64,000 nt of DNA. Source: Brevundimonas huaxiensis (GTDB lineage: Bacteria; Pseudomonadota; Alphaproteobacteria; Caulobacterales; Caulobacteraceae). This document shows positions 1 through 8,631 of the stretch, one piece after another. The stretch lies in NCBI RefSeq assembly GCF_014218725.1, contig NZ_JABBJE010000008.1, positions 1 to 64,000 of the forward strand, read 5' to 3'. A program made the translations under genes and the position numbers. Numbering within the stretch: position 1 is the first letter of the stretch; every line of letters starts with the position of its first letter. The notes below the pieces were generated by a model. The model did not search any database and was not told where the DNA came from. It saw only the letters and a program-made list of their open reading frames with translations.

Positions 1-97
1 GACGGCCCCGCCGAGCGATCAGCGCTGTCAGCTCTCGCGCGACGCGGCGTCCCGAGATCGAGGTGTCGGGGATCGCCGCCAGGCACTCGCGGGTGGA
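1..97 (-). mobile_element. IS3-family transposase (OrfB) fragment, runs off the window
   Basis: Read on the minus strand from base 97 to base 1, one frame gives the block STRECLAAIPDTSISGRRVA followed by RELTALIARRGR. This matches the stretch of IS3-family OrfB integrases around the second catalytic region, usually TRECLAL..DTSLSG..V.REL..LIA.RG, just before the SDNGTEF motif. Nothing like the preceding OrfB sequence (VVDDF) lies upstream of base 97, so the homology starts inside the transposase gene and not at an IS end. It therefore looks like the broken edge of an element. The rest lies outside the window, so I cannot say whether it is complete on the other side. Confidence 0.7.
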
Positions 98-1190
98 CCA
101 ACGTCTCGACCATGGCCTTTGGCGTGTAATGCGCTCCAAGCTCGCCCCTCTCCTCGGCGAACAAGGCATTTTCCATCAGCGCGCCAAAGATCGCAGGCTC
201 GACCTTCGCCCAGTCGCAGGCCGCAGCCTGACAAAGAATATCCAGCTCAATTTCCGAAACCGCGATCGCCGCGTCTTCGGCGTACAGACCGCCATTGTAC
301 CAGAGCATGTCGCATCGAAGGACCGGGCAGTAACCCCCCGTATCCATCGTGCGGAATACCTGACTGATCGCTTTGCTGAAGTTCTGCGCAGCTCCCTGAT
401 AGCTTTTCAGGAACTCGCCAAAGGCTCGATCCGGGATCAGTTGAACGCTATCGGCAAACATGGCGAAAACGCACTGCATCACAAAGACGGCCACGCGCCG
501 TTCCCATGCTGCCCGATGAACCGGATCGTTCGCTGCCGCTGCTTCGCACGAGAAGCGTTTTCGGAAGGACTGAACGAGGCGTCCCAGAAGCACAGCAACT
601 TCCGTCGTTGTCTCCTCCACACGCCTTGCAGGGTCCAGCGACATGGGATCGCTCCACACGGCCGCCAGGCGCTCCCTGATCTTGGGATCGCGTAGATCCG
701 AAAGCGCAATCCGGTAGTTTTCGCGGTCGGGATACTGGAGGTAGGTCTTTCCCATGCGGCTGAAGTCGGACCAGAGTTCAATGCTCCGCCCCACGTCGAC
801 CATGATGAGAAACGGCGGCCATTCGTCCAGCGCTCGCGCATAGCCCTTTGCCTGGGCCCGAGCCTTCTCCATTTTTCGTTCGACAACGTCGGGCCCGACC
901 AACTTCATCTGCTGCTTGTCAGGACTGTTGGCCAACCGCTTGGCTGTCTGCTTCGCTTCAAGCACGAAACATTCGCGACGATAGCAGTCGATGTAGCCCC
1001 AATGGGAGCTGAGGTCGTCGTGACGGAACCTTACGATCCGTTCGAACCCGTAATCGGGGTCGCCGACCTTTTCGTCATTAGGAGCGGCGACACCAAGAAC
1101 CCTGCAGAGTTGAATAACAAAGGACTGTGCTGTCTGCCGCTCTGAAGCCGAAGCGTTCGTCCAAATCTTGATGAAGTCGTCCACATCCAT
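98..1190 (-). pseudogene. MmeI-like type IIL/IIG restriction-modification protein, N-terminal part only
   Basis: From an ATG at 1190 the frame stays open for about 364 recognisable residues and continues past the window edge. Residues 1-80 form an MmeI-type nuclease domain with a PD-(D/E)xK signature: D68, nine residues, then E78-A-K80. A helical spacer follows, with DPARR near residue 185, and then FGALMENALF and GELGAHYT near residue 350, the block that normally precedes the SAM-dependent adenine methylase domain. Right after the block reading MVETLV the sequence becomes transposase-like in another frame, so no methylase domain (NPPY) is present here. Base use is AT-richer than the rest (about 52% G+C at 361-420 by hand count), which suggests horizontal acquisition. 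Related proteins occur as solitary type II enzymes and in DISARM/BREX-like loci; partners would lie to the left. Confidence 0.72.
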
Positions 1191-1252: not shown

Positions 1253-2446
1253 TTACATTTGGCCAAGAAGGGTTGGCTTGCCTAACCAATAGGAGAGTTC
1301 AGCAGGCCGCGAGATGTCCCAAATCGCCAAATCAGCGGCTTTGCCATTTTCGATGGTGCCGATCTCACCCGACAGACCCAGCGCCCGCGCCGCCTCTCGG
1401 GTCGCGCCGGCTAAGGCCTCTTCGGGTGTCATGCGGAACTGAACGCAGGCGAGGTTGAGCGCGGTGGTCATCGAAGCGACGGGCGAGGTGCCGGGGTTGC
1501 AGTCGGTGGCGACGGCCATCCGCACGCCGTGGCGGCGCAGGAGATCGATGGGCGGCGGCTGGGTCTCGCGCAGCATCAAATAGGCGCCGGGCAACAGGAC
1601 GGCGACCACGCCGGCTGCGGCCATGGCGGCGACGCCTTCCTCGGTCGCATGTTCGATGTGATCGGCGGACAGGGCTTCGTAACGCGCCGCCAGCGCCGCA
1701 CCGCCGCCGTTCGACAACTGATCGGCGTGCAGCTTGACCGGCAGGCCCAGCGCACGCGCCTTGTCGAACAGGCGCGACACTTCCGCGGTCGAGAAGGCGA
1801 TGGGCTCGCAATAGGCGTCGACCGCATCGACCAGACCTTCGGCATGGGCAGCAGGCAGGATGTGATCGATGGCCAGATCGACATAGGCGGCCCGGTCGTC
1901 GCGATATTCAGGCGGCACGGCATGCAGGCCCAGATAGCTGGTGCGGACACGCACTCCGCCCTCGCGCCCGATCCGACGCGCAACACGCAGCATCTTCAGC
2001 TCCGTCTCAAGGTCCAGACCATAGCCGGATTTGATCTCGACGGTGGTGACCCCTGTGGCCTTCAAACCCGCCAGACGTGTCATGGCCGAGGCGAACAGGT
2101 CATCCTCCGACTCGGCGCGCGTGGCCTTCACGGACGAGACGATGCCGCCGCCGGCCCGCGCGATCTCCTCATAGGGCGCGCCACCCAGCCGCTGTTCGAA
2201 CTCGGCCGAACGGTCGCCGCCGAACACCAGGTGGGTGTGGCAGTCGATCAGGCCAGGCGTGATCCAGCGGCCGTCCAGCCGCTGGGTTTCAGCTGCCTCT
2301 ACGGCCGGCAGGTCAGCGCGCGGTCCCACCCAGGCAATGCGGCCATCGGCGACGACCACGGCGGCGTCCTGTATCGCGCCGTAAGGAACCCGTCCCTCGA
2401 CCATGGTGGCGACGTGGCAATCGATCAGCAGACGGTCGGCCTTCAT
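1253..2446 (-). CDS. hutI: Imidazolonepropionase
   Basis: This cytosolic amidohydrolase-fold enzyme opens 4-imidazolone-5-propionate to N-formimino-L-glutamate, the third step of histidine breakdown. The 397-residue length fits the family. The metal-binding [11 protein letters not shown] motif is at about residue 67, [11 protein letters not shown] lies in the middle, and [10 protein letters not shown] is near residue 330. The start is the ATG at 2446, which overlaps the hutC stop as ATGA; a longer upstream extension would lie inside hutC and has no family similarity. The C-terminus ([12 protein letters not shown]) is a little shorter and more divergent than usual. It is the last gene of the hutF-hutC-hutI arm and is presumably repressed by HutC. 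Confidence 0.95.
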
Positions 2447-7101: not shown

Positions 7102-8631
7102 ATGACCGCGATTACTCTCGGCCAGTCGCCTCTCACACTTACTCAGCTTCGTGCGGTGCTGGAGGGCCCTGCTATCGTCTCACTGACGCCCGCCGCCTGG
7201 GCCGATGTGGAAAGGGGCGCAGCGACCATCGCCGCCATCGTCGCCGAGGGGCGCACCGTCTATGGCGTCAACACCGGCTTCGGCCTGCTGGCCAACACGT
7301 CCATCGCGCCTGAAGACCTGGAGACGCTGCAGCGTAATCTGGTTCTCAGCCACGCCTGTGGCGTCGGGCCGCTGCTGCCGGATTCGGTGACGCGTCTTTT
7401 GATGGTGCTGAAGATCGCCAGTCTGTCGCGCGGCGCCTCGGGCATTCGGCGCGAGACGCTGGAGGCCCTGATTGCCCTGGTCAACGCGGACGTCCTGCCC
7501 TGCATTCCATCCAAGGGATCGGTCGGCGCCTCGGGCGACCTGGCGCCGCTGGCCCATATGTCCTGCGTCCTTATCGGCGTGGGCGAGGCGCGGCTGAACG
7601 GCGAGACCTTAGAGGCCGAAGCGGCTCTGGCGAAGGTCGGCCTGACGCCTCTGACGCTGGGCCCGAAAGAAGGCCTGGCGCTGCTGAACGGCACCCAGTG
7701 TTCGACGGCCCTAGCCCTGGCCGGTCTGTTCGCGGCCGAGGCGACGTTCGCGGCAGGCATCGCCGCCGGGGCTCTGTCGGTCGATGCCTTGAAGGGGTCC
7801 GACGCGCCGTTCGATCATCGCATCCACGCCCTGCGCGGTCAGCCCGGCCAGATCGCCGTCGCCGCACGCCTGCGCGAACTGATGGCGGGCTCCGCCATCC
7901 GCGACAGTCACCGCGACGACTGCTCCAAGGTCCAGGATCCCTACTCCCTGCGCTGCCAGCCCCAGGTGATGGGCGCAGTCCTCGACGTGCTGACCAGCGC
8001 CGCCGCCACGCTGGCGCGCGAGGCCAACGCCGTGACCGACAATCCGCTGGTCTTCATCGAGGATGGCGACGTCATCTCGGGCGGAAACTTCCACGCCGAA
8101 CCCGTTGCTTTCGCTGCCGATCAGATCGCCATGGCTCTGTGCGAGATCGGCAATATCTCCGAACGCCGCACCTCGATCCTGGTCGATCCCAAGATGAGCG
8201 AACTGCCGGCCTTCCTGGTCAAGGAAAGCGGCCTGAACTCCGGCTTCATGATCGCCCAGGTGACGGCGGCCGCCCTGATCGCCGAAAACCGCATGGTCGC
8301 TCATCCGTGCAGCGTCGACACCGTGCCGACCAGCGCCAATCAGGAAGATCACGTCAGCATGGCCACCCACGGCGCCCGCCGCCTGTTGGACATGGCCGAG
8401 AACACGGCGACGGTGGTCGGCATCGAACTTCTGGCGGCGGCGCAGGGACTGGAATTCCATCGGCCGCTCACCAGCTCGCCGGCGCTGGAACAGGTCTTCG
8501 CCACCGTCCGCGAGGCCGCCGCCCCCTATGCCAGCGACCACTATTTCGCCCCGGACATCGCCCGAGCGACCGACGCCGTGCGCGCCGGTCGTTACCGAAC
8601 CTTCGCGGCGGACCTGCTGCCCTCGGCCTGA
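7102..8631 (+). CDS. hutH: Histidine ammonia-lyase
   Basis: HAL removes ammonia from L-histidine to give urocanate, the entry step of the pathway. The protein is 509 residues, as expected. The self-processing MIO prosthetic group would form from Ala-Ser-Gly at residues 143-145 in [22 protein letters not shown] near residue 54 carries the catalytic tyrosine, and the tail holds [17 protein letters not shown]. It is the last gene of hutG-hutU-hutH. Its stop is only six bases from the convergent mntP end, and no separate terminator hairpin is visible there. Confidence 0.97.

What the first reader, a model, noticed from the sequence alone, without database searches (positions are those of the whole stretch)
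1..1190. MmeI-type restriction-modification gene broken at an IS3 transposase fragment
The N-terminal nuclease (D-x9-E-A-K) and spacer of a large type IIL/IIG enzyme are intact, but just after GAHYTPKAMVETLV the sequence switches, in another frame, to the interior of an IS3-family OrfB. The transposase homology begins mid-gene and not at an IS end, so a simple insertion does not explain it; a deletion or recombination between a defence gene and an IS copy does. The AT-rich base use marks the start of a foreign island abutting the hut operon. A nuclease domain left without its methylase could be harmful or silent.
Basis: partly seen in the sequence, partly recalled or inferred. Interest (0 to 1): 0.6.

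Follow-up and report, generated by a model that had tools for sequence, protein, structure and literature searches.

The report
Restriction gene broken by IS remnant
A one-gene anti-phage restriction enzyme in a Brevundimonas bacterium has been cut in two by a damaged copy of a common jumping gene, and the half that looked lost sits at the end of another piece of the same draft genome; this is an ordinary way for such genes to die.

Summary
Window 99-1190 (minus strand) encodes the first 364 residues of an MmeI-type (Type IIL/IIG) restriction-methylase; bases 1-95 are the interior of an IS3-family orfB. The window begins at the end of draft contig C8. The "missing" methylase half is not lost: it lies at the end of contig C1 as an open frame of 748 codons, joined to the exact right end of the same 1269-bp IS. 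Two relatives carry the gene without the IS, with both flanks. The simplest structure is: gene 5' part | IS ~756-1269 | gene 3' part, with about 59 bp of gene and the IS's left 755 bp gone. The break falls between methylase motifs X and I, so the gene is most likely dead. The "foreign island" reading does not: this is a single low-GC gene in a slot between hutI and a histidine-kinase gene, filled by divergent MmeI-like genes in 12 of 20 further Brevundimonas loci read and empty in 8. One oddity remains: another IS remnant in this genome (contig C4) starts within one nucleotide of the same IS position. Overall this is ordinary decay of a restriction gene; interest is low.

The parts
99..1190 (-). 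5' part (364 codons) of an MmeI-type restriction-methylase gene: PD-(D/E)xK nuclease domain, helical spacer and motif X (GAHYTP)
   Evidence: Pfam MmeI_N and MmeI_hel; PADLOC REase_MTase_IIG 372 bits; D68-x9-EAK and motif X located; 97% protein identity and 96.8% DNA identity to L042
1..95 (-). Interior of an IS3-family orfB (IS positions 756-850 of 1269), cut off by the contig end
   Evidence: 95 of 95 bases match the full IS at L063:1100-2368; NCBIfam transpos_IS3 E 4e-70 on that IS's orfB
94..95 (.). Junction gene/IS: 2 nt (CA on the minus strand) that fit both sides
   Evidence: C8, IS and L042 laid side by side; gene match ends at window 94
1253..2446 (-). hutI (imidazolonepropionase), the conserved gene that borders the slot
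   Evidence: ORF list; hutI found by tblastn in 20 of 20 fetched loci

Best explanation
A chromosomal single-gene Type IIL (MmeI-like) restriction-modification gene, sitting in a variable slot between hutI and a histidine-kinase gene, was hit by an IS3-family element in the same direction as the gene. The IS's left 755 bp and about 59 bp of adjoining gene were then (or at the same time) lost, leaving gene 5' part | IS ~756-1269 | gene 3' part. The nuclease/spacer part now runs out of frame into the IS remnant and would stop about 138 codons later; the methylase/target-recognition part has lost its start and motif X. The most likely state is a silent pseudogene, with neither restriction nor methylation. 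Shown: both halves, both junctions, the orthologues, the slot. Inferred: that C8 and C1 are still joined through this one IS remnant, the order of events, and the loss of activity.
For: Missing half at C1:1030660-1032908, 93% identical to L042, ending where the IS right inverted repeat begins. C8 enters the IS in orfB sense and C1 is bounded by the IRR in the matching direction. L042 and L043 hold the region without the IS and with both flanks. The two sides stop at L042 7097 and 7157. The rest of the gene is open: 364 and 748 codons without a stop, dN/dS 0.11 and 0.215 against L042, so this break looks like the only and a recent lesion. It lies between motif X (residue 352) and motif I (LDPACGTGNF). 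MmeI cleaves as a dimer and needs two recognition sites for efficient cleavage (PMC4833311, passages), so a fragment without TRD should not cut; that step is inference.
Against: No read or contig spans the IS remnant; the C8-C1 link rests on synteny with two relatives. Contigs C23-C35 read wholly as N, so the middle of the IS in this genome was not seen and the 514-bp length of the remnant is inferred from the relative's copy. The 3' part has a possible in-frame TTG start before motif I (noticed by eye in the sequence, not tested), so a low level of a methylase fragment is not excluded.
Confidence: 0.85

Rival explanations
1. Assembly chimera: the 95 bp of IS interior were wrongly joined to the gene at the contig end.
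For: The junction is 95 bp from a contig end, in a draft where 22 of the 44 ends of the readable contigs C1-C22 lie in this same IS.
Against: 21 of those 22 ends carry 92-95 bp of the repeat beyond their junction (C1_s carries 383), as expected where a contig stops one overlap length into a true repeat. A chimera would also have to remove the 59 bp of gene and the IS left end. C1 ends at a precise IRR on the other side.
Confidence: 0.07
2. The two gene halves are no longer neighbours: recombination between IS copies moved them apart, each keeping part of an IS.
For: Many IS ends (9 left, 9 right, 4 interior among 44 readable contig ends) give ample substrate.
Against: Two relatives keep both flanks together; a single remnant between the halves needs no further event.
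Confidence: 0.08

Closest known systems
MmeI (Type IIL restriction-modification enzyme, PDB 5HR4)
   Same: Domain order nuclease, helical spacer, gamma-class N6-adenine methylase, TRD; D-x9-E-x-K nuclease motif
   Different: Longer (1134 against 919 residues in the intact orthologue); 5HR4 is the only distinct solved sequence matched at E 0.001 or better (E 3e-34); here the gene is cut in two
PADLOC REase_MTase_IIG model PDLC03627
   Same: Intact orthologue L042 matches positions 2-1132 of 1136 at 1147.7 bits
   Different: Broken by an IS in this strain; window part covers positions 2-362 only
IS3-family insertion sequence, 1269 bp, full copy L063:1100-2368
   Same: Interior identical over 95 of 95 bp (C8) and right end over 95 of 95 bp (C1)
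   Different: The copy in the gene lacks its left 755 bp

Membership tests
MmeI-type (Type IIL/IIG) restriction-methylase | N-terminal PD-(D/E)xK nuclease domain with D-x9-E-x-K | tested here: met
   MmeI_N hit; DCYRRECFVLEAK at residue 68; MmeI has D70, E80, K82 (PMC4833311, passages)
MmeI-type (Type IIL/IIG) restriction-methylase | Nuclease, spacer, methylase and TRD in one chain | tested here: not met
   Met by the orthologue L042 (4 Pfam domains). In this strain the methylase and TRD domains lie beyond the IS, so no single frame holds them all: it is a broken member
MmeI-type (Type IIL/IIG) restriction-methylase | Cleavage and methylation at a specific site | not testable with these tools
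   Needs an assay
IS3-family element | OrfA/OrfB with DDE domain, inverted repeats | tested here: met
   transpos_IS3 237 bits over cut-off 160; rve domains; first 15 nt of both ends identical. All tested on the full copy in an unnamed relative
Simple IS3-family insertion | Both IS ends present, short target duplication | tested here: not met
   Left end absent at the C8 junction and about 59 bp of gene missing

The most novel reading that the evidence does not exclude
Nearly the same internal IS position (755-758, TCA|CCCGCG) is the left boundary of two IS remnants at unrelated places (the MmeI gene and the region downstream of a tRNA-Ala gene), and a third starts 18-19 nt further in: the IS may have a recurrent internal breakpoint, for example a surrogate left end or a fragile site, that yields short IS pieces with a genuine right end.
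Probability: 0.1. Interest if true: 0.35.

Novelty: new member of a known kind. Interest (0 to 1): 0.17.

Why it matters
It settles a suspicious contig end: no half-gene with a loose nuclease, but a restriction gene apparently freshly inactivated by a truncated IS. The comparison adds that the gene occupies a variable slot between hutI and a histidine-kinase gene in Brevundimonas, with divergent alleles, empty sites and several independent breakages, which is useful to anyone studying how restriction genes come and go.

Tried and rejected
Surrogate inverted repeat at the internal breakpoint: not supported. By gapped local score 618 of 1180 interior 28-nt stretches match the IS ends as well as the breakpoint does; without gaps the best nearby site (position 750, 8 nt before the break) scores 10 of 20, level with several others in the IS and below the best interior sites (13, 12, 12).

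Recurrent truncation in other genomes: a 28-base pattern just inside the breakpoint (up to 3 mismatches) gave 9 matches in 7 of 131 genus genomes, this one included. The 7 matches outside this genome continue with the normal IS sequence; only the two in this genome (C4, C8) do not.

Partner of the C4 remnant: looked for with relatives. What follows the tRNA gene in two relatives was not found cleanly at any of the 44 readable contig ends (a weak 65-74% likeness inside C18 only), so that copy's right side stays unknown. The parts of C15 and C22 searched gave only partial or weak matches in relatives, none across the IS junction. Clustering of the four interior breakpoints has a simulated chance of about 0.0009 (a pair within 1 nt and three within 19 nt), but the test was chosen after seeing them.

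Literature: 3 searches; none of the papers held has all four terms Brevundimonas, restriction-modification, insertion sequence and IS3. One paper was seen in passages (PMC4833311); the others only in search listings. I do not claim that the slot or the IS is unpublished.

Full report
Setting. The window is the first 64,000 bases of contig C8 (97,051 bp) of a 35-contig draft of 3.16 Mb. The closest named genomes found are Brevundimonas sp. ASV9 (L042) and B. vesicularis S00192 (L043), the only 2 loci returned by the genome scan, which leaves out the window's own genome.

The gene. The frame from 1190 down encodes 364 residues with Pfam MmeI_N and MmeI_hel, the nuclease motif D68-x9-E-A-K and motif X GAHYTP at 352 (the name 'motif X' and 'motif I' are recalled). 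In MmeI the catalytic residues are D70, E80 and K82 and the order is nuclease 1-155, spacer 156-300, methylase 301-620, TRD 621-825 (PMC4833311, passages). The intact orthologue in L042 (1134 residues from the same start) has MmeI_N, MmeI_hel, MmeI_Mtase and MmeI_TRD, matches PADLOC's Type IIG model over nearly its length and, among solved structures at E 0.001 or better, only MmeI (5HR4). NCBIfam gave only a weak BREX methylase hit far below its cut-off (18 against 900 bits).

The IS. Bases 1-95 match, 95 of 95, positions 756-850 of a 1269-bp IS3-family element whose two ends share their first 15 nt; the family rests on transpos_IS3. The full copy is from an unnamed Brevundimonas relative. 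In this genome the same IS appears at 22 of the 44 ends of contigs C1-C22: 9 left ends, 9 right ends and 4 interior points. Contigs C23-C35 read wholly as N.

The missing half. A search of the own genome with L042 DNA found the rest of the gene and its downstream neighbours at the end of C1 (C1:1026973-1032908, 94%). C1's last 95 bp are exactly the IS right end. The C8 side stops at L042 position 7097 and the C1 side starts at 7157, so about 59 bp of gene are absent (a base or two at each side fit both gene and IS). Directions agree with gene 5' | IS ~756-1269 | gene 3'. The C1 half is open for 748 codons to the orthologue's stop; dN/dS against L042 is 0.11 (5' part) and 0.215 (3' part), so no other lesion is seen. 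The gene's frame continues into the IS for about 138 codons and stops, reading the relative's copy. The break separates motif X from motif I, hence the expected loss of both activities; this is inference.

The slot. With the L042 gene as query, 3 of 131 genus genomes, this one included, match at over 90% DNA identity; with weaker matches anywhere in the genome the total is 63 of 131. The kinase gene beyond the slot is matched in 108 of 131 at E 1e-20 or better (some of these matches are short). I fetched 20 loci: the 24 best kinase matches less this genome, G069 and G126 (which hold the L042-type gene) and G105 (too near a contig start). hutU, hutF, hutC, hutI and the kinase gene are found in 20 of 20. 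An MmeI-like gene lies between hutI and the kinase gene in 12 of 20, at about 49-55% protein identity to L042 (one piece 41%); in 8 of 20 tblastn finds none (E 1e-10) and hutI and the kinase match are 400-446 bp apart. In 3 of the 12 (L155, L157, L159) a further 1.6 kb or so lies between the MmeI-like gene and the kinase gene (2.0 kb against about 0.38 kb), so the slot is not always one gene; I did not study that extra DNA. Of the 12, 10 are single open frames and 2 (L146, L147) are split. L043's copy of the L042-type gene carries a stop codon where L042 has GAA. So this is a variable restriction-gene slot, with breakage in several strains, rather than the edge of a larger foreign island here. 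The gene's GC (58.0%) is lower than in 115 of 115 comparison windows, which fits horizontal arrival of the gene.

The oddity. The C4 end, just after a tRNA-Ala gene, enters the IS at 755 and C8 at 756; the neighbouring DNA shares only 2-3 nt (CA, TCA) with the IS there; C15 enters at 774 and C22 leaves at 909. The seven copies outside this genome found by pattern run normally through this point. The site has no special likeness to the IS ends. A post hoc simulation gives about 0.0009 for such clustering. I leave it unexplained.

Verdict. Observation confirmed; deletion at an IS copy supported; 'lost methylase' and 'foreign island' not supported; ordinary decay of a known kind of gene.

Noticed in passing
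L062 (C4:350001-353028), end; L040 (C15) end; L012 (C22) start: Three further contig ends lie in the interior of the same IS (positions 755, 774 and 909), one within a nucleotide of the window's breakpoint although the neighbouring DNA is unrelated.
   Followed up: partly
L140-L159, between hutI and the kinase gene: Variable restriction-gene slot: 12 of 20 loci filled by MmeI-like genes at about 50% protein identity to the L042 type, 8 of 20 empty, although flanking proteins are 74-99% identical to L042's. Three filled loci hold about 1.6 kb more before the kinase gene.
   Followed up: partly
L043:8000-8100: B. vesicularis S00192 has a stop codon in the same MmeI-type gene (681 + 445 residues), an independent breakage of this allele.
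   Followed up: yes
contig ends C5_e, C6_s, C8_e, C14_e, C16_s and C16_e, C17_s, C17_e, C20_s, C21_s: Two further repeated sequences (containing GAGGCTGTGTGAAAACGCC and GAGGCCGTGTAAAAACC) sit at five contig ends each and look like other insertion sequences; the genome seems IS-rich.
   Followed up: no
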